Shown: positions 36,338 through 45,965 of the stretch, piece after piece
Numbering within the stretch: the first letter of the stretch is position 1
Layout: each line of letters opens with the position of its first letter
From: Anaeromyxobacter diazotrophicus
GTDB lineage: Bacteria; Myxococcota; Myxococcia; Myxococcales; Anaeromyxobacteraceae
Assembly (NCBI RefSeq): GCF_013340205.1
Contig: NZ_BJTG01000001.1
Span: 310,001-374,000, forward strand
Direction: 5' to 3'
DNA length: 64,000 bases
Translations under genes and position numbers: made by a program
The notes under the pieces: generated by a model
The model's input: the letters and a program-made list of their open reading frames with translations, nothing else
What the model was told of the DNA's origin: nothing
Database searches by the model: none

Positions 36338-36682
36338 ATGGCCGCCCTCCCCATCTCGCCCGCCGCGGCCGCCGCCACCTCGGGCGCGGTCGCCGCCCCG
36401 CGCGCCAGCTTCGGCGCGGCGCTGCGCGCCCAGGTCTCCGCCCTCCCCTGCGCCGCGCCGGCGCCCCACCCGGCGCGCGCGGCGCTCGCCGCGGTCGAGC
36501 AGGCGCGCCAGCGGCTCGACGCGGTGCTGGCGGCGGCGCGGCGGGGCCGCACCTTCAGCGCCCACGAGCTCCTCGCGCTCCAGGCCGACGCCTACCGCTA
36601 CTCGCAGACGGTGGAGGTGGCGTCCCGAGTGGTGGAGCAGGGCGCCCAGTCGGTGAAGCAGGCCGTCAACACGCAGGTGTGA
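36338..36682 (+). CDS. sctI: Type III secretion inner-rod protein SctI
   Basis: A 114-residue protein. The Ala-rich N-terminal half is followed by the C-terminal helix pair diagnostic of YscI/HrpB-type inner rod subunits: SAHELLALQADAYRYSQTVE, then VASRVVEQGAQSVKQAVNTQ. The order sctI then sctJ is the usual one. The ATG is 14 bases after the previous stop with a weak ribosome binding site, suggesting coupling. Confidence 0.75.
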   Translation: MAALPISPAAAAATSGAVAAPRASFGAALRAQVSALPCAAPAPHPARAALAAVEQARQRLDAVLAAARRGRTFSAHELLALQADAYRYSQTVEVASRVVEQGAQSVKQAVNTQV

Positions 36683-36693
36683 GGGAGGCCCCG

Positions 36694-37422
36694 ATGCGCT
36701 GGTCCCCCGCGCTCCTGCTCCTCCTCGCCGCCGGCTGCGGCGGGGAGGAGATCCTGCACGGCCTGGAGGAAGGGCAGGCGAACCAGATCCTGGTCGCGCT
36801 GGACGAGGACGGGGTGCGGGCGGAGAAGCGGCGCGACGAGGGGAGCGAGGGCGCCTGGCGCGTCGAGGTGGAGCGGGCCGAGGCGCCGCGCGCGCAGCGG
36901 CTGCTGGCGGAGCGGGAGCTGCCGCGGCCACGGCCGCCGGGCTTCGGGGAGGTGTTCGGGAAGGGCAGCGTCGTGCCGACCCCCTCCGAGGAGCGGGCCC
37001 TCTACCTGCACGCGCTCTCGGGGGAGCTGGCGCGCAGCGTCGAGGCGATCGACGGGGTGATCGAGGCGCGGGTGCACCTGGCCTTGCCGCCGCAGGACCT
37101 GCTGCGCGCGGAGCCGGCCCCGCCGCCGCGCGCGGCCGTGCTGGTGAAGGCGCGGCCGGGGGCGCGCGGGCGGCTCGAGGCGCTCGCGCCGGGCCTCCAG
37201 GCCCTGGTGGCGGGGGCGGTGGCGGGGCTCGAGCCGGCCGCGGTATCGGTGGTCGTCGCGGAGGCGGCCCCCGGCCTCCCGCCGCCGCGCCCGTCCGGCC
37301 GCGGCCGCGCGCTCCTGCTGGCGCTCGCCGGCGCCACCGCCCTCCTCGGCGCGGGGCTCGCGGCGGCGCCGTACCTCGGCCGCCCCTGGCGGTCGCTGCG
37401 CTGGCCGCGGAAGGCCGATTGA
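36694..37422 (+). CDS. sctJ: Type III secretion inner-ring lipoprotein SctJ
   Basis: A 242-residue YscJ/PrgK/FliF-like ring protein. It has a lipoprotein signal ending LLLLLAAGCGG, ring-building domain 1 (LHGLEEGQANQILVALDEDG), and ring-building domain 2 (LSGELARSVEAIDGVIEARV, then a strand such as AAVLVKARPGA). A C-terminal membrane segment (LLLALAGATALLGAGLAAAP) and a short basic tail close it. The lipobox and single C-terminal anchor identify a non-flagellar system; FliF is larger and not a lipoprotein. The ATG at 36694 has GGGAGG; a GTG at 36679 overlaps the sctI stop. Confidence 0.9.
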   Translation: MRWSPALLLLLAAGCGGEEILHGLEEGQANQILVALDEDGVRAEKRRDEGSEGAWRVEVERAEAPRAQRLLAERELPRPRPPGFGEVFGKGSVVPTPSEERALYLHALSGELARSVEAIDGVIEARVHLALPPQDLLRAEPAPPPRAAVLVKARPGARGRLEALAPGLQALVAGAVAGLEPAAVSVVVAEAAPGLPPPRPSGRGRALLLALAGATALLGAGLAAAPYLGRPWRSLRWPRKAD

Positions 37423-37685
37423 CCCCGGCCCTCCGGCGCCTCGCCGCCCTGTCGGCCGCGCTCGCGCCGGAGGCCGCGGAGCGCTGGCTGCTGCTCGTCT
37501 CGCGCGACGGGCCCGCCGCCGCCTCCCTGGCCGCCGAGCTGGCGCGGGGCGGGCGCGAGGCGCGCGTGGCCGCGGTGGCGGCCGCGTTCGCCGGCGACGA
37601 GCCGCCCCCGCGGACCGTGCCGGTGCACGCTCTCCTCCAGCGGCTCGAGCGCGAGGAGCGCGAGGGCCGCCTGCACTCTCGGTGA
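37419..37685 (+). CDS. Small type III-locus protein, unidentified
   Basis: An 88-residue Ala/Arg/Glu-rich helical protein (PALRRLAALSAALAPEAAER, AAASLAAELARGGREARVAA). A TTG start overlaps the sctJ stop as TTGA, so translation is probably coupled. In other systems this slot holds SctK or SctL; the length is too short for either, and I cannot assign it. It is followed by 690 bases of non-coding sequence and the HNH module, so it may be a remnant of a longer gene cut by an insertion. Confidence 0.5.
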   Translation: MTPALRRLAALSAALAPEAAERWLLLVSRDGPAAASLAAELARGGREARVAAVAAAFAGDEPPPRTVPVHALLQRLEREEREGRLHSR

Positions 37686-38375
37686 CGCCGCCTCTCGAGG
37701 TGCGGCCCCCTCTCCCTGCCCTCTCCCCGGCGGGGGAGTAGGAGGTGAGTGCGCGCGAGTCCTGCTCCCCTCGCCCCGCGGTGCTCCCCTCGCCCCGCGG
37801 AGCGGCTCATGATTTCATCACATCCTCGCGGAAGCCTCGAGGCGGCGGGATCCCGCGGGTCCCTCTTCTCCATCGCCCCGCGCAGCGGGGAGAGGGCCGG
37901 GGAGAGGGGCGTCGCAACCCCGCCCGCAGCTCGGAGCGGTTTCGCGCGAGCTGGCGGGGTTCGGCAGGGAGGGGCGCGGCAGGTGGGCGGGCGGCGCCGC
38001 GCTGGCGGGCGCGGCCGTTGGGCGGACGTCGCACGCGAGGCGGGGCCGCGCGTCCGACGCGGCGGTGCGTGGCCCGGCTCACGACGTGTCCCCAGGGTGA
38101 ATACGCGGGGCTGCGGCGGATGCGGGCCGGGCACCGACATTCACCTATCGTAATCATCGTCTGGGTCGTGCCACATGGGAGCTTGACGCGTTTCCGCGCG
38201 GATCGCGCTTCGGCGGACGCGAAGGCGCGAGGAAGCCTCTCCCGCAACCGCACCGAGCCGCTCCGAGGCGCGGCGGCCGGCCGAACCCGTTCTCGCCGCG
38301 TCCGCCCTCCGAACGGCCCCGGCGCGAACCTCGTGCGTCCGGGGAGGCCGCGAAGACGCATGAGACACTCTCGGT
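37686..38375. other. Non-coding stretch inside the type III locus
   Basis: About 690 bases without a convincing gene. It holds pyrimidine-rich runs followed by their complements (for example CTCTCCCC near 37723 and GGGGAGAGGG near 37887), an island richer in A/T near 38140-38160 (TTCACCTATCGTAATCATCG), and one copy of a 16-base repeat. It looks like the left flank of an inserted module. Confidence 0.5.
37881..37896 (+). repeat. 16-base direct repeat, left copy flanking the HNH module
   Basis: CGCAGCGGGGAGAGGG occurs here and again at 39669-39684, in the same orientation, on either side of the HNH genes. The motif belongs to GGGGAGAGGG-type intergenic sequence common in GC-rich genomes, so it could be chance or a dispersed repeat rather than a target duplication. 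Confidence 0.45.
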
Positions 38376-39110
38376 ATGACCGACGCCCGCGCGCTCTCCC
38401 GCCGCATCGCCTCGCTCCTCGCCGAGGAGCGGAACCGACTCGCCGAGTTTCTCGTCGCCCTGGCGGACTTCGACCGTCAGCGCGGGTGGGGCACGCTCGG
38501 CTACGCCTCGCTCTTCCAGTACCTCGAGCGCGAGCTCCGGCTCACGAGCAGCGCCGCCGCCCGGCGGATGACCGCGGCCGCGCTCGTCCAGCGCTTCCCG
38601 GCGGTCGTGGAGCCGCTCCGCGACGGCCGCGTCTGCATGTCGGTGGTGTACGAGCTCTCGAAGGCGCTCACCCCGGAGAACGCGAGCGAGGTGCTGCCGC
38701 GCTTCTACGGGCTCTCGAAGCGCGAGGCGGAGGCGCTCGTCGCCGAGCTCAGGCCGGTCGCGAATCCGCCGCGCCGCGAGGTGGTCTCGGGGCTCGCGCG
38801 CACCGCGCCGCCGGCGCGTGTCAGCGCGCCCGCGGAGTCGCAGGCCGCCTCGCCTGTACCCGAACGGACTTCGCCGGGGGTACAGCGAGACGCAGACCTC
38901 TTCTCCGCGCCGGCTCGCCCGCGCGATGAGGTGGTGCCCCTCGACGCTGACCTCCGCCGCTACCACCTCGCCGTCTCGAAGGCGTTCCTCGCCAAGCTCG
39001 ACGCGGCCAAGGACGCGCTCTCCCACGCCATCCCCGACGGCGACACCGAGGCGGTGCTCACCGCCGCGCTCGACCTCCTCCTCGAGAAGGCCGCCGACGC
39101 GGCCTCGTGA
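38376..39110 (+). CDS. HNH-associated (DUF222-like) N-terminal protein
   Basis: A 244-residue helical protein. It resembles the N-terminal half of myxobacterial HNH endonuclease-motif proteins: LAEFLVALADFDRQRGWGTL, GYASLFQYLERELRLTSSAA, ARRMTAAALVQRFPAVVEPL and RDGRVCMSVVYELSKALTPE. A variable Pro/Ser-rich linker leads to a second helical unit (YHLAVSKAFLAKLDAAKDAL). Homologues normally continue into an HNH domain, here encoded in the next frame from 39107. It is not related to secretion and interrupts the T3SS gene order. No ribosome binding site is evident before the ATG. Confidence 0.75.
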   Translation: MTDARALSRRIASLLAEERNRLAEFLVALADFDRQRGWGTLGYASLFQYLERELRLTSSAAARRMTAAALVQRFPAVVEPLRDGRVCMSVVYELSKALTPENASEVLPRFYGLSKREAEALVAELRPVANPPRREVVSGLARTAPPARVSAPAESQAASPVPERTSPGVQRDADLFSAPARPRDEVVPLDADLRRYHLAVSKAFLAKLDAAKDALSHAIPDGDTEAVLTAALDLLLEKAADAAS

Positions 39111-39508
39111 AGAAGCCGCGGGCAGCGCCTTCCACGCCCTCCGCTGACCCGCGCCACGTCCCGGCGGCGGTCGCGCGGGAGGTGTGGAAGCGGGACGGCG
39201 GCCGCTGCAGCTTCCGCCTGCCGGACGGGAGCGTCTGCGGCTCGACCAGGCGGCTCGAGCTCGACCACATCCAGCCGGTCGCGCTCGGCGGGCGCAGCAC
39301 CGCCGACAACCTGAGAGTGGCTTGCTGGGATCACAACTCCCTGCACGCGGAGCACGTCTTCGGCAGGGAGCACATGGAACAGTTCCGGAAGGACGCGGGC
39401 CGGAGCGCTCCAGCTCTCGCTGGCGGAAGCACTTCAGGGGCGCGCGGCGAGGAGGCGGAAGCCGCTGGCTCGACGCTCACGCCGCGACGGCGCGGTACCG
39501 GATCGTGA
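39107..39508 (+). CDS. HNH endonuclease domain protein
   Basis: A 133-residue protein. The HNH core runs AVAREVWKRDGGRCSF, then CGSTRRLELDHIQPVALGGR, then STADNLRVACWDHNSLHAEH. The Cys pairs (RCSF/VCGS), the DH, the N of DNLR and the final H are visible. The GTG at 39107 overlaps the previous stop as GTGA. In relatives the two parts are usually one polypeptide, so this is either a translationally coupled pair, a -1 frameshift product, or a recent split. The C-terminal 45 residues are low-complexity. Confidence 0.8.
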   Translation: MKKPRAAPSTPSADPRHVPAAVAREVWKRDGGRCSFRLPDGSVCGSTRRLELDHIQPVALGGRSTADNLRVACWDHNSLHAEHVFGREHMEQFRKDAGRSAPALAGGSTSGARGEEAEAAGSTLTPRRRGTGS

Positions 39509-39826
39509 GCCGATCTCGCGGACGGCGCCGCGGACGTGGGGGCGGCGCCTCGCCGGCGGCGCTCGCCGGACGGTGCCGCCTGGCTCGACGAGGCGGCGAC
39601 CGCTGGACGGCCACGCACCTCTCGGCCGGCTGTGACGTGCCTAGGCCGACTTGTGGCGAATCATGAGGCGCAGCGGGGAGAGGGGCCTCTCGGCGGCGCT
39701 CGCCTCCGCGGACGCCCCTCGGACCACGCGTTCGGTCGCCGGACCCGCCCGTCCCATCGCTCCTCGAGTAGACGCACGTTTTCCACGCCCGAAGCCTGGC
39801 ACGTTCCGTGAAGCAGCGCCTCCCCG
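39509..39826. other. Intergenic stretch between the HNH module and sctQ
   Basis: 318 bases without a convincing gene. It contains the right copy of the 16-base repeat (39669-39684), a small palindrome GAGAGG-GG-CCTCTC (39678-39691), and a -24-like TGGCACG (39799-39805) without a proper -12 partner. sctQ begins at its end with a poor ribosome binding site. Confidence 0.5.
39669..39684 (+). repeat. 16-base direct repeat, right copy flanking the HNH module
   Basis: An identical copy of CGCAGCGGGGAGAGGG at 37881-37896, lying 160 bases after the HNH gene. It merges with a short palindrome to its right. Confidence 0.45.
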
Positions 39827-40801
39827 ATGCCGCTCTCCGCTCTCCCCCTCGCGACGCGCGGCGCCGCCCTGCTCTCCCCCGGGGCGCGCGCCGCCGGCGC
39901 GGAGGCGAGCCGGGCCGCGGCGGCGGCGCTCACCGCGCTCCTGGGGGCGGCGGTCGAGATCGCCGGCACCCCGCTCTCCGGCCCGGGCGCGGCGCTGACG
40001 GGGATGGCGGCGGTGGAAGTCGCGCTCGAGGGCGCCGGCGGCTGCGCCGTCCTGGAGGTCGACGCCCTGCTCCTGGCGCGCGCGCTGGAGAGGCTCGGCG
40101 GCGAACCGGTCCGCACGCCCGCCGCGCGGCGGCCGACCGGTCGGGAGCTGGCGCTCCTCGACCTCTGCACCCTGGCGGCGCTCGACGCCGTGCGCGGCGG
40201 GCCCGTCGAGGCGCTCGTCCCCCGGCTGGCGCTGGGCGGCGGCGCCGCGCCCGAGCCCGGCGCGCTGGTGGTCGCGCTCGAGCTGGGGCTCGGCGAGGAG
40301 CGCGCGCGGGGTCGCCTGCTCGTCCCGGCCGCCGCGCTGCGGGCGCTCTCGCGGCCAGGCGCGCCGACCGCCGCCGCCGCCGAGCTCCCGCTCGAGCTCG
40401 CGCTCCGGCGCGGGGCGATGTCGCTCGCGCGGGCCGACCTCGACCTGCTCGGGCCCGGCGACGTGCTCCTCCTCGATCCAGGGGAGCCGGACGAGGCGCT
40501 GGTCCTGCCGGGCGGGCTCGCGCTCCACGGCCGGCTCGAAGGCTCCCTCTTCCACGTCCAGGAGATCGCGATGACCGAGACCCAGGCCTCCTACCCGCTC
40601 ACGCTCTCCGTCGAGGTGGCGCGGGTGACCGTCACCTTCGGCGAGCTGGCGCGGCTCGAGCCGGGCGCGGTGCTGGCGCTCGACGTCCGGCGTGGCGGCG
40701 CGGTGGTCCTGCGCGCCGGCGAGCGGGCGCTGGCGCGCGGCGAGCTGGTCGACGTGGACGGGGCGCTCGGGGTGCGCGTCGTCGAGCTGGAGGGGCGGTG
40801 A
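39827..40801 (+). CDS. sctQ: Type III secretion C-ring (sorting platform) protein SctQ
   Basis: A 324-residue YscQ/SpaO/FliM-FliN-like protein forming the cytoplasmic pods. The N-terminal part is Ala/Leu-rich with acidic patches. Two SPOA-type domains follow: a degenerate one around 165-235 (LPLELALRRGAMSLARADLDLLGPGDVLLL) and a clear C-terminal one at 254-322 (YPLTLSVEVARVTVTFGELA, LEPGAVLALD, GELVDVDGALGVRVVEL). An internal start at codon 249 may yield the SPOA2 domain alone. The fliO-like gene overlaps the stop (GTGA). Confidence 0.88.
   Translation: MPLSALPLATRGAALLSPGARAAGAEASRAAAAALTALLGAAVEIAGTPLSGPGAALTGMAAVEVALEGAGGCAVLEVDALLLARALERLGGEPVRTPAARRPTGRELALLDLCTLAALDAVRGGPVEALVPRLALGGGAAPEPGALVVALELGLGEERARGRLLVPAAALRALSRPGAPTAAAAELPLELALRRGAMSLARADLDLLGPGDVLLLDPGEPDEALVLPGGLALHGRLEGSLFHVQEIAMTETQASYPLTLSVEVARVTVTFGELARLEPGAVLALDVRRGGAVVLRAGERALARGELVDVDGALGVRVVELEGR
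40571..40801 (+). CDS. Possible internal product SctQ-C
   Basis: An in-frame ATG (codon 249 of sctQ) is preceded by AGGAG at 40560-40564 with a six-base spacer, a better ribosome binding site than that of sctQ itself. The product would be 76 residues covering exactly the second SPOA domain. YscQ, SsaQ and Spa33 are known to make such internal C-terminal products, which pair with the long form in the sorting platform. That it is made here is inferred from the site. Confidence 0.6.
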   Translation: MTETQASYPLTLSVEVARVTVTFGELARLEPGAVLALDVRRGGAVVLRAGERALARGELVDVDGALGVRVVELEGR

Positions 40802-41154
40802 GGCCGTGGAGCCTGCCGGCGGCCGCGGGGCCGCGCGCCCTCGCCGTCGCGGGGGGCGGCGCGCTCGCCCTGCTGGCCGCGGCCGCGGCCGGGGAGCTCG
40901 GCCGCGGGGCGGCCCTCGCCACCGGGCTCTGCGGCCTCGCGATCGCCCTCCTCGCCTGGCGCGGCGCCGGCCAGCCCGCGGGCGCGGCGCCGGAGCTCCG
41001 CGTCGCCGAGCGCCACGCGCTCGGCCGCGACGCCGGGGTGGCGCTGCTCGCCACGGGCGAGCGCCGGCTGGTGGTCGGCTACGGCGCCGCCGGGGTGACG
41101 CTCGTCGCGGAGCTGCCCCCCGCCAGGCCCGCGGGGCCGGGAGACCGGACGTGA
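40798..41154 (+). CDS. FliO-like export-apparatus protein
   Basis: A 118-residue protein with an N-terminal membrane region (ALAVAGGGALALLAAAAAG, then ALATGLCGLAIALLAW). The cytoplasmic domain reads ELRVAERHALGRDAGVALLA, then TGERRLVVGYGAAGVTLVAE, the FliO pattern (VVERxxLGxxxxLxLVxxGxRxLLLG..GVxLL). It lies directly before sctR (fliP), the flagellar position of fliO, which assists FliP assembly. Non-flagellar systems usually lack it. The GTG start at 40798 overlaps the sctQ stop, and its own stop overlaps the sctR start. Confidence 0.7.
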   Translation: MRPWSLPAAAGPRALAVAGGGALALLAAAAAGELGRGAALATGLCGLAIALLAWRGAGQPAGAAPELRVAERHALGRDAGVALLATGERRLVVGYGAAGVTLVAELPPARPAGPGDRT

Positions 41155-41828
41155 CCCCGCTCGCGCTGGCGGCTCCGCCCGCGGGCCTGGCCGAGCGCCC
41201 GGCCGACCTGCTCGTGCTGCTCGGCGCGGCGGCGCTCGTCCCGGCGGGGCTCGTCGTCCTCACCTCGTTCCTCAAGATGGCCGTGGTCCTCTCGCTGACC
41301 CGGTCGGCGCTCGGCGCTCCGCAGATCCCGCCCTCCTCGGCGGTCACCGGCCTCGCGCTGCTGCTCACGCTGGTGGTGATGGCGCCGGTGGCCGAGGAGT
41401 CGTGGCGCCTCGCCCGGGCGGTGCCGGCGGGCGGGATCGACCGCACGCTCGAGGCCGCGGCCGCCGCGGCCGAGCCGCTGCGCGGGTTCCTCGGGCGGTT
41501 CGCGCGGCCCGACGACCGCGAGACCTTCCTCGAGCTGGCGCGGCGCGCGCGCCCGCCGGGCGGCCGCGCCGCCGTGGGCGGCACCGACTTCGCCGTGCTC
41601 GCGCCGGCGTTCGTCGTCTCCGAGCTGCGGCGCGCCTTCACCATCGGCTTCCTGGTGTTCCTCCCCTTCCTGGTGGTCGACCTGCTCGCCGCCAACGTCC
41701 TCCTCGCGCTGGGGCTGACGCAGCTCTCGCCCACGACCGTCGCGCTCCCGTTCAAGCTCCTCCTCTTCGTGGCGGTGGACGGCTGGAAGCTCGTCGCCCG
41801 CGGCCTCGTCCTCGGATACCTCGCCTGA
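41151..41828 (+). CDS. sctR: Type III export apparatus protein SctR (FliP family)
   Basis: A 225-residue membrane protein forming the pentameric core of the export gate. It has LVVLTSFLKMAVVLSLTRSA and LGAPQIPPSSAVTGLALLLT, hallmarks of FliP/YscR, then a loop with RPDDRETFLELA, FAVLAPAFVVSELRRAFTIG, FLVFLPFLVVDLLAANVLLA and LPFKLLLFVAVDGWKLVARG. The GTG overlaps the FliO-like stop as GTGA. It has no cleavable signal peptide, unlike many FliP proteins. Confidence 0.95.
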   Translation: MTPLALAAPPAGLAERPADLLVLLGAAALVPAGLVVLTSFLKMAVVLSLTRSALGAPQIPPSSAVTGLALLLTLVVMAPVAEESWRLARAVPAGGIDRTLEAAAAAAEPLRGFLGRFARPDDRETFLELARRARPPGGRAAVGGTDFAVLAPAFVVSELRRAFTIGFLVFLPFLVVDLLAANVLLALGLTQLSPTTVALPFKLLLFVAVDGWKLVARGLVLGYLA

Positions 41829-41834
41829 GGGGCC

Positions 41835-42101
41835 GTGGAATCGACGCTCCTCGCCCTGGGCCGCGAAGCCGTGCTGCTGGCGCTCCTCGTCTCGGCGCCG
41901 CCGCTGCTGGCCGCGCTGCTGGTGGGGCTCGCCACCGGCGTCCTGCAGGCCGCCACGCAGGTGCAGGACCCGGCGCTCGGCGTCGTCCCCCGGCTCGCCG
42001 CGGTGCTCGTGGCGCTGGGGGTGGCCGGGCCGTGGATCGGCGCGCGCCTGTCGCGCTTCGCGGCGGCGTGCCTCGAGCTCGTGCCCCGGGTGGCGCCGTG
42101 A
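41835..42101 (+). CDS. sctS: Type III export apparatus protein SctS (FliQ family)
   Basis: An 88-residue protein with two membrane segments. It shows the FliQ pattern: LGREAVLLALLVSAPPLLAA, then LLVGLATGVLQAATQVQDPA, then ALGVAGPWIGARLSRFA. Four copies normally wrap the SctR5-SctT core. The GTG start is six bases after the sctR stop. Confidence 0.95.
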   Translation: MESTLLALGREAVLLALLVSAPPLLAALLVGLATGVLQAATQVQDPALGVVPRLAAVLVALGVAGPWIGARLSRFAAACLELVPRVAP

Positions 42102-42889
42102 CCGCGACCCCGCTCCTCGACGCGGTGGCGCCGCTCGTGCCGGGGGCCGCCGCTGCGGCGCTGCACGGGGTCCGCCTGCTGCCGGCCGCGCTCCTCTGCC
42201 CGTTCCTGGGCGGCCCGCTCGTGCCGCCCGCCGTGCGCGGCGCGCTCGCGTTCGGCCTGGGCGCGAGCGCCTGGTCCGCCGCCGGCGGCGGCGCCTTCGC
42301 GGGCGGCGCCCGCGAGCTCCTCGCCGCCGCCGCCCGCGAGCTCGCGCTGGGCGCCGGCCTCGGATTCCTGGCGGGCCTCCCCTTCGAGGCGGCGCGCGCG
42401 GGTGGGCGGCTCGTCGACACGCTGCGCGGCGCCACCCTCGCCGAGCTGCACGTCGCGCCGCTGCGCCAGCGCGAGTCCGCCGCCGGCGACCTGCTCACCC
42501 AGTGGATGGTGGTCCTGGCCGCGGCCGCCGGCGGCGACCGCCTGGTAGTGGCGGCGCTCCTCGACAGCTTCCGCGCCGCTCCGGTGGGCGCGGGCGCGCT
42601 GCCGCCGGGGCTGCTCGAGGCGGGGCTGCGCGGGGCGGGCGAGCTCCTGGCGTGCGCGGTCGCGCTCGGCGCCCCCGCCGCGGCCGGGGTGCTGGCCGCC
42701 GACCTCGCCGTGGCCCTGGCGCTCCGCGCCGCGCCCCAGCTGGCGCTCTCGCCCGCGGCCCAGCCCGCCCGCGCCGCGCTGGGCCTCCTGCCGCTCGCGC
42801 TCGGGGCGGCCGCGCTGGCGGGCCGGCTCACCGCCGCGGTGGCGCTCGCCGCCGGGCTCCTGCGCGGCGCCGCGGCGGGGGCCCCGTGA
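42098..42889 (+). CDS. sctT: Type III export apparatus protein SctT (FliR family)
   Basis: A 263-residue polytopic protein. It has LHGVRLLPAALLCPFLGGPL, FGLGASAWSA, ARELALGAGLGFLAGLPFEA, then ARAGGRLVDTLRGATLAE, the FliR/YscT signature, and a C-terminal half rich in Ala/Leu membrane helices. The GTG overlaps the sctS stop as GTGA. It closes the SctRST gate complex. Confidence 0.94.
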   Translation: MTATPLLDAVAPLVPGAAAAALHGVRLLPAALLCPFLGGPLVPPAVRGALAFGLGASAWSAAGGGAFAGGARELLAAAARELALGAGLGFLAGLPFEAARAGGRLVDTLRGATLAELHVAPLRQRESAAGDLLTQWMVVLAAAAGGDRLVVAALLDSFRAAPVGAGALPPGLLEAGLRGAGELLACAVALGAPAAAGVLAADLAVALALRAAPQLALSPAAQPARAALGLLPLALGAAALAGRLTAAVALAAGLLRGAAAGAP

Positions 42890-43923
42890 GCGAGCGCACC
42901 GAGCAGCCGACGCCGCGGCGCCTGCGCGAGGCGCGCCGCCGCGGCGAGGTGGCGAGCTCCCGCGAGCTCACCGGCGCCGCGGCCCTCGCCGCCGGGCTGG
43001 CGGCGCTCGCGGTGACGGGCCCCGGCGCGGCGCGCGCGCTGGCGGCCCTCCTCCGGCGCGCGCTCCTGGAGGCCATCGGCCCCGCCCCGTCACCGGCGCC
43101 GGCCGCCGCCCTGCTCCGCGCCACCGCCGCGCTCGCCGCCGCGGCGCTCCCGCCGTGCGCCGCCGCGGGGGCGGGCGCGCTCCTCGCCGGCCTCGTCCAG
43201 ACGCGGGGGCTCTTCGCGCCGGAGGCGCTCCGCTTCCGGCCGGAGCGCCTCGACGTGGCGCGCGGGCTCGCCCGGCTCGCGTCCGGCGGCCGGCTCGCCG
43301 CGCTCGGCCTCGCCGCCGCCAAGGCCGCCGCCGCGCTGGCGCTGGCGGCCGGCCTGGTGCGGGCCGCGCTGCCGCAGGCGCTCGCCGCCGCGCGCCTCGC
43401 GCCCGCGCAGCTCCTGCGCCTCCTCCCGGCCCTCGCGCTGCGGGTGGCGCTCCCCGTCCTCGGGCTGCTGGTCGCGCTCGGCCTCCTCGACCTCGCCCTG
43501 GCGCGCTGGCGGCTCCACCGCAGCCTGCGCATGACCCGCGCCGAGGTGCAGCGCGAGCGGCGCGAGGACGAGGGCGACCCGCGCCTCGTCGCGGAGCGGC
43601 GGCGGCTGGCGCGGGCGGGCGGCGCCGGGCCGCTGCGCCTGGCGACCTGCCTGGTGGTGAACCCCACCCACGTGGCGGTGGCGCTGCGGCACGAGCCGCA
43701 CCGCGACGACCCGCCGTGGGTGCTGGCGAAGGGGATCGGCGCGGCCGCGGCGCGGCTGCGCACCGAGGCGCGGCGGGCGGGGGTCCCGGTGGTACGCGAC
43801 CCCGCGCTGGCGCGCGCGCTCTTCCGCCTGGCCGAGGTCGGCGACGCGATCCCGGAGGAGCTGTACGACGCCGCCGCCGCGGTCCTCGTCCACGTCCGCG
43901 CCGGCGCCCAGGAGGGCGGGTGA
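42886..43923 (+). CDS. sctU: Type III export switch protein SctU (FlhB family)
   Basis: A 345-residue protein. It starts with the conserved SERTEQPTPRRLREARRRGE, has four membrane segments, then the cytoplasmic linker (RMTRAEVQRERREDEGDPRL). The autocleavage motif Asn259-Pro-Thr-His262 (VVNPTHVAVALRH) controls the substrate-specificity switch. The C-terminal domain continues with VLAKGIGAAAARLRTEARRA and ALFRLAEVGDAIPEELYDAA. The GTG overlaps the sctT stop as GTGA. Confidence 0.96.
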   Translation: MSERTEQPTPRRLREARRRGEVASSRELTGAAALAAGLAALAVTGPGAARALAALLRRALLEAIGPAPSPAPAAALLRATAALAAAALPPCAAAGAGALLAGLVQTRGLFAPEALRFRPERLDVARGLARLASGGRLAALGLAAAKAAAALALAAGLVRAALPQALAAARLAPAQLLRLLPALALRVALPVLGLLVALGLLDLALARWRLHRSLRMTRAEVQRERREDEGDPRLVAERRRLARAGGAGPLRLATCLVVNPTHVAVALRHEPHRDDPPWVLAKGIGAAAARLRTEARRAGVPVVRDPALARALFRLAEVGDAIPEELYDAAAAVLVHVRAGAQEGG

Positions 43924-45965
43924 ACCCGCTCCACCGCCTGGCCGGCCGGCTCCGGGGCGGCGCGGACGTGGCCCTGGCGCTCCTCGCGCTCGCCACGGTG
44001 AGCCTGCTGGTGGCGCCGCTCCCGGCGTGGCTGCTCGACCTCGCCCTGGCGGCGAACCTGGCCCTCTCCGCGACCGTGCTGGTGGTGGCGCTCTCCGCGC
44101 GCGACGCGCTCGGCTTCGCGAGCTTCCCCACCCTGCTCCTCTTCACGACCCTGCTCCGGCTGGCCCTCGAGGTGAGCTCGACGCGGCTCGTGCTGGCGCG
44201 CGGCGAGGCGGGCCGGGTGGTGCAGGCGTTCGGGCGCATCGCGGTGGCGGGCGACTACGTGGTGGGGGCGGTCATCTTCGCGATCCTGACGCTGGTGCAG
44301 CTCCTCGTGGTGACGAAGGGCGGCGAGCGGGTGGCCGAGGTGGCGGCGCGCTTCACGCTCGACGCCATGCCCGGCAAGCAGCTGGCGATCGACGCGGACC
44401 TGCGGGCGGGGGCCATCGATCCGGCGGAGGCGCGCCGGCGCCGGCGGGCGCTGGAGCGCGAGGGGCAGCTCTACGGCGCGATGGACGGCGCGCTCAAGTT
44501 CGTGAAGGGGGACGCGCTGGCAGGGATCGCCGTCGTCCTCGTCAACGTCTGCGGCGGCCTCGTCGCGGGGCTCGTCCGAGGCCTGCCGCTCCGGGCGGCG
44601 GCGCAGCGGTACGCGCTGCTCGCCATCGGCGACGGGCTCGCGGCGCAGGTCCCGGCCCTGCTCGTCTCCATCGCGGCCGGGGTGGTGGTGACGCGGGTGG
44701 CCGCGGAGGAGGAGGGCGGCAGCCTGGCCCAGGACCTCGGCCGCCAGCTCTTCTCCGATCCGCGAGCGCTCGGCGCGGTGGCGGCGCTCTGCCTGGGGCT
44801 CGCGATCGTGCCGGGCCTCCCCGCGGGGCCGTTCGCGGCGCTCGCGGCCGCGGCCGCGCTGGCGGCCTTCCTCGCCGGCCGGGGCGAGCGCGGCGCCGCG
44901 CGGGCGGGCCGCGCGGGTGCGCCGAGGGGGGCGGGCTCGCTCCCGCTCGCCGCCGCCCCCGCGCAGGCCCCGTCGCCGCTCGCGCTCGAGCTGGCGGAGG
45001 ACCTCCTGCCGCTGGCGGCGAGCGCGCTCGGGCGCGAGCTCCTCCCGGCGGTGCGGCGGGAGGCCTCCGCCGACCTGGGGCTGCCGCTCCCTCCGCTCGC
45101 GCTCCGCGCCGCCCCGCTGCCACCCGGCGGCTGGCGGCTGCTCGTCGACGAGGTCCCCGCCGCGGCGGGCCGCGCGCCGGCGGGCGAGTGGCTCGCGCTC
45201 ATCGACCCCGCGGAGCTGCACGCGGTCGGCATCGGCGCCGCGCCCGAGGTGGAGCCGCTCACCGGGAGCGCGGCCGCGCTCGTGGGCGAGGCCGAGGTGG
45301 CGCGCGCGAGCGCGCTCGCGCCGCTGCGGGGGCCGGCGGAGCGGGTCGCGGCCGGCGTGGCGGCGGGCCTGCGCCGGCACGCCCACGACCTCGTCGGCGT
45401 GCAGGAGGTGCAGGCGCTGCTCGACGAGCTCGAGGCCACGCAGCCGGCGCTCGTGCGCGAGGTCGCGCGCCAGGTCCCGGCGCCGCTCCTGGCCGAGGTG
45501 CTGCGGGCCCTCCTGGAGGAGGGCGTTCCCCTGCGCCCCCTGCCGCGCATCCTGGAGGCGCTCCTCGAAGCGGGCGGCGCGCCCCGCGGCGCGGCCGCCC
45601 TGGTGGACGGCTGCCGCCGGGCGCTGCGCCGGCACCTCGCTCACCGCTACGCCGGGGCTGGGTCGCTCGAGGCGGTGCTCCTCGACCCAGCCGCCGAGGC
45701 GGCGCTGCGCGAGGCGCTGGCCGGGAGCGTGGCCGCGCTCGATCCGCGCGCCGCCGACGGGCTCCTGGACGAGCTCGCGCGGGCGCTCGCGGCGCCCGAC
45801 GCGCGGAACCCCGTGCTGCTCGCGGCCTCGGACGTGCGGCGGCCGCTCCGCCAGCTCGTGGCGGCCCGCTTCCCGAGGCTGGCGGTGCTGTCCTACGAGG
45901 AGCTTCCGGCGACCTGCCCGGTGAGGCCGGTCGGGAAGCTGGCGCTGCCCGCGGCCGAGGGCTAG
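43920..45965 (+). CDS. sctV: Type III export gate protein SctV (FlhA family)
   Basis: A 681-residue protein with an N-terminal half of about eight membrane segments. It carries the FHIPEP-family region (FASFPTLLLFTTLLRLALEV, VVTKGGERVAEVAARFTLDA, MPGKQLAIDADLRAGAIDP). The cytoplasmic domain forms the nonameric ring that receives substrate-chaperone complexes. The GTG overlaps the sctU stop (GTGA). It is the last gene of the locus. Its TAG stop and the TAG stop of the convergent IHF-like gene share the palindrome CTAG at 45962-45965. Confidence 0.96.
   Translation: MNPLHRLAGRLRGGADVALALLALATVSLLVAPLPAWLLDLALAANLALSATVLVVALSARDALGFASFPTLLLFTTLLRLALEVSSTRLVLARGEAGRVVQAFGRIAVAGDYVVGAVIFAILTLVQLLVVTKGGERVAEVAARFTLDAMPGKQLAIDADLRAGAIDPAEARRRRRALEREGQLYGAMDGALKFVKGDALAGIAVVLVNVCGGLVAGLVRGLPLRAAAQRYALLAIGDGLAAQVPALLVSIAAGVVVTRVAAEEEGGSLAQDLGRQLFSDPRALGAVAALCLGLAIVPGLPAGPFAALAAAAALAAFLAGRGERGAARAGRAGAPRGAGSLPLAAAPAQAPSPLALELAEDLLPLAASALGRELLPAVRREASADLGLPLPPLALRAAPLPPGGWRLLVDEVPAAAGRAPAGEWLALIDPAELHAVGIGAAPEVEPLTGSAAALVGEAEVARASALAPLRGPAERVAAGVAAGLRRHAHDLVGVQEVQALLDELEATQPALVREVARQVPAPLLAEVLRALLEEGVPLRPLPRILEALLEAGGAPRGAAALVDGCRRALRRHLAHRYAGAGSLEAVLLDPAAEAALREALAGSVAALDPRAADGLLDELARALAAPDARNPVLLAASDVRRPLRQLVAARFPRLAVLSYEELPATCPVRPVGKLALPAAEG

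What the first reader, a model, noticed from the sequence alone, without database searches (positions are those of the whole stretch)
40560..40801. Internal ribosome binding site and ATG in sctQ for a separate SPOA2 product
AGGAG at 40560-40564 with six-base spacing before an in-frame ATG at the exact start of the second SPOA domain. It is stronger than the site of the full-length gene. It parallels YscQ-C and SsaQ-short, suggesting that the dual-product C-ring strategy extends to this early-branching system.
Basis: partly seen in the sequence, partly recalled or inferred. Interest (0 to 1): 0.6.

Follow-up and report, generated by a model that had tools for sequence, protein, structure and literature searches.

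The report
Second start codon inside sctQ
A gene of a needle-less secretion machine in a soil myxobacterium carries a second, deeply conserved start signal that very probably makes an extra small ring protein from the same gene; this trick is known from disease-causing bacteria and is here seen in the earliest-branching group of these machines.

Summary
AGGAG (40560-40564), six bases, then an in-frame ATG (40571, codon 249) lies just before the second SPOA domain of sctQ (39827-40801). Its anti-SD pairing is far stronger than at the gene's own start (-7.4 vs -1.1 kcal/mol). It is not chance. Across this genome and its family relatives (six genera) a start codon plus SD is kept in 16 of 18 scorable sctQ genes, the best score of 2140 aligned codon columns in seven T3SS genes. 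The synonymous GC3 dip there is the deepest of 2156 windows. Among 40 more distant genomes of the order the ATG is kept in 37, inside a linker where otherwise only the GAG of the SD is conserved. Best reading: a real internal translation start giving a 76-residue FliN-like SctQ-C, as in YscQ, SsaQ, Spa33 and HrcQ, within a FliM::FliN-like fusion of the secretin-less Myxococcales NF-T3SS, reported as the root lineage of NF-T3SS. Expression was not tested. New member of a known kind; no paper found reports it for this lineage.

The parts
39827..40801 (+). sctQ, full-length product of 324 aa: FliM-middle-like domain, SPOA1 region, linker, SPOA2; ATG start without recognisable SD
40560..40564 (+). 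internal Shine-Dalgarno AGGAG (codons CAG GAG)
40571..40573 (+). internal start codon ATG, codon 249 of sctQ, six bases after AGGAG
40571..40801 (+). predicted short product SctQ-C, 76 aa, FliN-like, about 8 kDa, stop TGA 40799-40801
40595..40789 (+). SPOA2 domain (PF01052 FliMN_C)
   Evidence: 61.7 bits
40798..41154 (+). FliO homologue, GTG start overlapping the sctQ stop (GTGA)
   Evidence: PF04347, 30 bits, over cut-off
41151..41828 (+). sctR (FliP family)
41835..42101 (+). sctS (FliQ family)
42098..42889 (+). sctT (FliR family)
42886..43923 (+). sctU (FlhB family)
43920..45965 (+). sctV (FlhA family)
36679..37422 (+). sctJ (YscJ/FliF family); exact start uncertain

Best explanation
The AGGAG/ATG pair is a working internal translation start. 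From one sctQ mRNA the ribosome makes the full-length protein (FliM-like N-terminal half, SPOA1, SPOA2) and, by starting again at codon 249, a 76-residue SPOA2-only protein (SctQ-C). By analogy with YscQ-C and Spa33-C the short form would dimerise like FliN and join full-length SctQ in the cytoplasmic ring or pod. Shown here: the signal, its conservation and selection at the nucleotide level, and the FliM/FliN-like domain plan. Inferred: that the short protein is made, its stoichiometry and its role.
For: Exact sequence and frame. Start codon plus SD kept in 16 of 18 scorable sctQ genes of the family (window genome included), top of 2140 codon columns in 7 T3SS genes; the next-ranked column is a genuine gene start, sctR. 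Two genomes use GTG, not another valine codon, with SD intact. Deepest synonymous GC3 dip of 2156 windows begins exactly at the start codon. Weak local folding: family mean -10.0 against -18.8 over all seven genes, rank 47 of 2131 columns and third within sctQ; window genome rank 2 of 324 codons. In 40 genomes of other families of the order the ATG is kept in 37; linker columns mostly 17-57% conserved but GAG at -3 and ATG 93% each. Third-base G enriched over the SD codons and depleted upstream. SPOA2 part matches YscQ-C 3uep (E 1.9e-12), HrcQb and FliN. Dual products are shown by others for YscQ, SsaQ, Spa33, SpaO and HrcQ (PMC4295842, PMC4832279, PMC8553256).
Against: No expression data. In one genus (G013-G016) the aligned codon is GTC, GTC, GTG or deleted; only possible GTG substitutes nearby. 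One genome (G137) lacks it and two (G122, G123) have GTG one codon later. The GC3 dip is weak in the 40 more distant genomes (rank 106 of 2042) and the codons after the ATG in the window genome itself are GC-rich. A conserved start plus SD can arise from protein conservation alone, as in sctV (32 of 32), though there the context is 97% conserved against 42% in sctQ.
Confidence: 0.86

Rival explanations
1. The linker motif E-x-x-M is a conserved protein feature (for example a docking motif) and the SD/ATG is a by-product of CAG/GAG codons in a GC-rich genome.
For: CAG and GAG are the usual codons, so Q-E gives AGGAG for free; sctV shows that conserved start plus SD can be protein-driven.
Against: The amino acid at -4 varies (Q, L, K, P, E, V, T) while its third base stays G in 37 of 40, against 31.6 expected; -5 in the near family prefers GTG/CTG, 15 of 18 against 9.2 expected. 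The Met changes to GTG-coded Val or shifts by a codon. GC3 dip and weak folding at the site.
Confidence: 0.07
2. The SD-like sequence is a ribosome pause between SPOA1 and SPOA2 that helps co-translational folding; no new initiation takes place.
For: It lies in the interdomain linker.
Against: A pause needs no start codon at a fixed distance, no start-codon conservation and no downstream GC3 dip.
Confidence: 0.03
3. Internal initiation is real, but its main use is to load ribosomes for the downstream chain of overlapping genes (FliO, sctR to sctV); the short protein is incidental.
For: sctQ stop and FliO start overlap (GTGA), and FliO/sctR, sctS/T, sctT/U and sctU/V also overlap by 4 bases; the window gene's own start has almost no SD.
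Against: FliO has its own strong SD, -9.8 kcal/mol; the start sits at the domain boundary of a FliN-like unit, which coupling alone does not require.
Confidence: 0.1

Closest known systems
YscQ / YscQ-C of the Yersinia Ysc injectisome
   Same: One gene, internal start before SPOA2, short FliN-like product; C-terminal part is the best sequence match among solved structures (3uep).
   Different: The Yersinia product is shown to be made and needed (PMC4295842); here only the sequence evidence exists, and the system is reported to lack secretin and needle (PMC3459982).
SsaQ, SpaO (Salmonella), Spa33 (Shigella), HrcQ (Xanthomonas) dual-product sctQ genes
   Same: Internal start near the SPOA2 boundary; Spa33 uses GTG as some relatives here do.
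   Different: Distant injectisome lineages with demonstrated expression (PMC4832279, PMC8553256).
Flagellar FliM and FliN (separate genes)
   Same: N-terminal half folds like the FliM middle domain and matches PF02154 in 21 of 35 members; SPOA2 is FliN-like; FliO and FliP/Q/R/FlhB/FlhA homologues follow.
   Different: In flagella FliM and FliN are two genes, as in this genome's own flagellar cluster on contig C11; here they form one reading frame.
HrcQA/HrcQB of Pseudomonas syringae
   Same: Same two-part content; HrcQb-C (1o9y) matches the SPOA2 part.
   Different: There the two parts are separate genes (established knowledge).

Membership tests
SctQ family of NF-T3SS | C-terminal SPOA2 (FliMN_C) domain | tested here: met
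   PF01052, 61.7 bits, residues 257-321
SctQ family of NF-T3SS | SPOA1 domain upstream of SPOA2 | tested here: inconclusive
   No Pfam hit in the window protein; the model has strands at 192-244 and matches FliM and the FliM(SPOA)::FliN fusion 4yxb, profile match to FliM 8umd_C over positions 58-260 only E 0.004
SctQ family of NF-T3SS | Encoded with sctJ and the export apparatus sctR-sctV | tested here: met
   window 36679-45965
Dual-product sctQ genes (YscQ-C type) | In-frame internal start with SD at the SPOA1/SPOA2 linker | tested here: met
Dual-product sctQ genes (YscQ-C type) | Start conserved in relatives beyond what the protein requires | tested here: met
Dual-product sctQ genes (YscQ-C type) | Short product detected in cells | not testable with these tools
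   needs proteomics, immunoblot or ribosome profiling
Dual-product sctQ genes (YscQ-C type) | Short product dimerises and binds full-length SctQ | not testable with these tools
   only inferred from similarity to 3uep and FliN
Myxo 'short locus' NF-T3SS of Abby and Rocha | Found in Anaeromyxobacter and Myxococcus relatives with conserved gene order | tested here: met
   same-family loci named Anaeromyxobacter and homologous loci in Myxococcus, Corallococcus, Archangium; J-Q-FliO-R-S-T-U-V order
Myxo 'short locus' NF-T3SS of Abby and Rocha | Lack of secretin and SctF | not tested
   taken from PMC3459982

The most novel reading that the evidence does not exclude
The internal start is the surviving start of an ancestral fliN gene: fliM and fliN fused into one frame in the ancestor of NF-T3SS while the fliN ribosome binding site and ATG were kept, and the Myxococcales systems, with FliM-middle domain, FliO and flagellar gene order still present, preserve that intermediate.
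Probability: 0.35. Interest if true: 0.68.

Novelty: new member of a known kind. Interest (0 to 1): 0.5.

Why it matters
If the short product is made, one-gene two-protein coding of the C-ring reaches the lineage reported as the root of all non-flagellar T3SS, so it would be ancestral and not a late feature of pathogens. It also gives a testable handle on the needle-less T3SS of predatory myxobacteria: a single codon change in Myxococcus xanthus should remove the FliN-like subunit. It warns annotators that a FliN equivalent is hidden inside sctQ in these genomes.

Tried and rejected
GC3 dip as replicate in the 40 distant genomes: weak at the site (rank 106 of 2042), and alignment ends gave stronger dips, so I rely on it only in the near family. 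Ranking by local folding across genes is confounded by conserved stretches of export-apparatus genes (sctR, sctV) that fold weakly; within sctQ the site ranks third. An apparent frameshift in the sister species G001 is only an N gap in the assembly. FliO in this operon looked new but is published for Myxococcota (PMC12403147). A collection scan for names worked but leaves out the window's own record.

Full report
What is there. The window is part of a 4.8 Mb genome (G000, contig C1) whose nearest named relatives are Anaeromyxobacter species. sctQ runs from 39827 to 40801, followed by FliO, sctR, sctS, sctT, sctU and sctV. AGGAG at 40560-40564 is followed by ATCGCG and ATG at 40571, in frame, codon 249 of 324. 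The Pfam SPOA2 domain starts at codon 257. The anti-SD duplex energy is -7.4 kcal/mol at this site and -1.1 at the full-length start.

Is it chance in one genome? Of 49 internal in-frame ATGs in 4623 codons of 13 window genes, this is the only one with a 5-mer SD at a proper distance; one other reaches an equal duplex energy by weaker pairing. The site is also one of the least folded places of the gene (rank 2 of 324).

Near relatives. 18 further sctQ loci were found in the family, about 40-50% identical over the gene (64% over the C-terminal half for the sister species). Aligned, the start column holds ATG in 13, GTG in 3, GTC in 2, and one gap. Among 2140 aligned codon columns of sctJ, Q, R, S, T, U and V this column has the highest fraction of genomes with both a start codon and an SD (16 of 18 scorable); the next is a true gene start, sctR. 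Allowing for amino acid and average codon use, the codons from the start onward are the most GC3-poor of all 2156 eight-codon windows; reduced GC just after the start is a usual mark of real initiation regions (established knowledge). The genera are not independent samples, so I use ranks and not p-values.

Distant relatives. The profile found full-length homologues in about 100 more genomes of the order; 40 were read, from the Myxococcaceae-like family and two neighbouring families. ATG with an SD lies at the aligned position in 37; two use GTG one codon later and one lacks it. The linker there is poorly conserved (mean 42% within 12 columns) but the GAG three codons upstream and the ATG are each 93% conserved. 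The residue before that GAG varies while its third base is G in 37 of 40, and third-base G is depleted just upstream. Named genomes with the same site include Anaeromyxobacter soli, A. oryzisoli, Myxococcus xanthus, Corallococcus, Archangium and Pyxidicoccus species.

A caution. In the distant set sctV has a column with start plus SD in 32 of 32 genomes, inside a stretch 97% conserved in protein. Conservation alone is therefore not proof; the low conservation around the sctQ site and the synonymous signals are what carry the argument.

What the protein is. An AlphaFold2 model from 35 sequences (mean pLDDT 85) matches the FliM middle domain over its N-terminal half (H. pylori 4gc8, TM 0.67 by target). 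PF02154 FliM matches 21 of 35 members and PF01052 all 35. By sequence profile the C-terminal part is closest to YscQ-C, the FliM::FliN fusion, HrcQb and FliN. So this sctQ reads as a FliM::FliN-like fusion, and the internal start would release the FliN part.

Second T3SS. Myxococcaceae carry a second SctQ family. All 20 read have an in-frame GTG, TTG or ATG with an SD in the linker before SPOA2, against a background of 0.28 per window of that size. This is suggestive, weaker than the main case, and mostly not ATG. That this family belongs to the 'long' predation locus (MXAN_2434-2464; PMC12075869, PMC10433427) is inferred.

Literature. Abby and Rocha place the Myxococcales systems at the root of NF-T3SS and report no secretin and no SctF (PMC3459982). 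Dual products are shown for YscQ (PMC4295842), Spa33, where the authors call it a common strategy of NF-T3SS (PMC4832279), and HrcQ (PMC8553256). Searches combining Myxococcales and SctQ found no report of an internal start in this lineage; the library lacks most subscription journals.

Verdict. Observation confirmed, interpretation supported. It is most likely a real internal start making a FliN-like SctQ-C. The mechanism is known, the lineage is new for it, and expression remains to be shown.

Noticed in passing
window 37686-39826: DUF222 and HNH-type genes (38376-39508) sit between sctJ/ORF37419 and sctQ; the J-to-Q distance is 2408 bases here against 261-962 in 18 relatives, so this looks like a lineage-specific insertion that may have removed the normal upstream signals of sctQ.
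   Followed up: partly
window 40798-41154: FliO homologue (PF04347) inside a non-flagellar T3SS operon, in flagellar gene order; FliO in Myxococcota NF-T3SS is already published (PMC12403147).
   Followed up: yes
L198-L217: Second SctQ family in Myxococcaceae: 20 of 20 have GTG, TTG or ATG with an SD in the linker before SPOA2, hinting at a second dual-product gene with weaker start codons.
   Followed up: partly
L021, L022, L024, L025 (genomes G013, G016, G015, G014): One genus of the family has lost the ATG (GTC, GTC, GTG, deletion); three of the four have a GTG with SD at or just upstream of the site, a possible natural displacement of the start.
   Followed up: partly
G000:C4:7288-8556 and G000:C4:335814-337079: The two FliI/SctN-type ATPases of this genome lie on another contig, not beside this T3SS locus; which one serves it is unknown.
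   Followed up: no
window 37419-37685: Short ORF after sctJ with weak homologues at the same place in eight relatives and no Pfam match; perhaps a remnant of a sorting-platform gene (SctK or SctL position).
   Followed up: no
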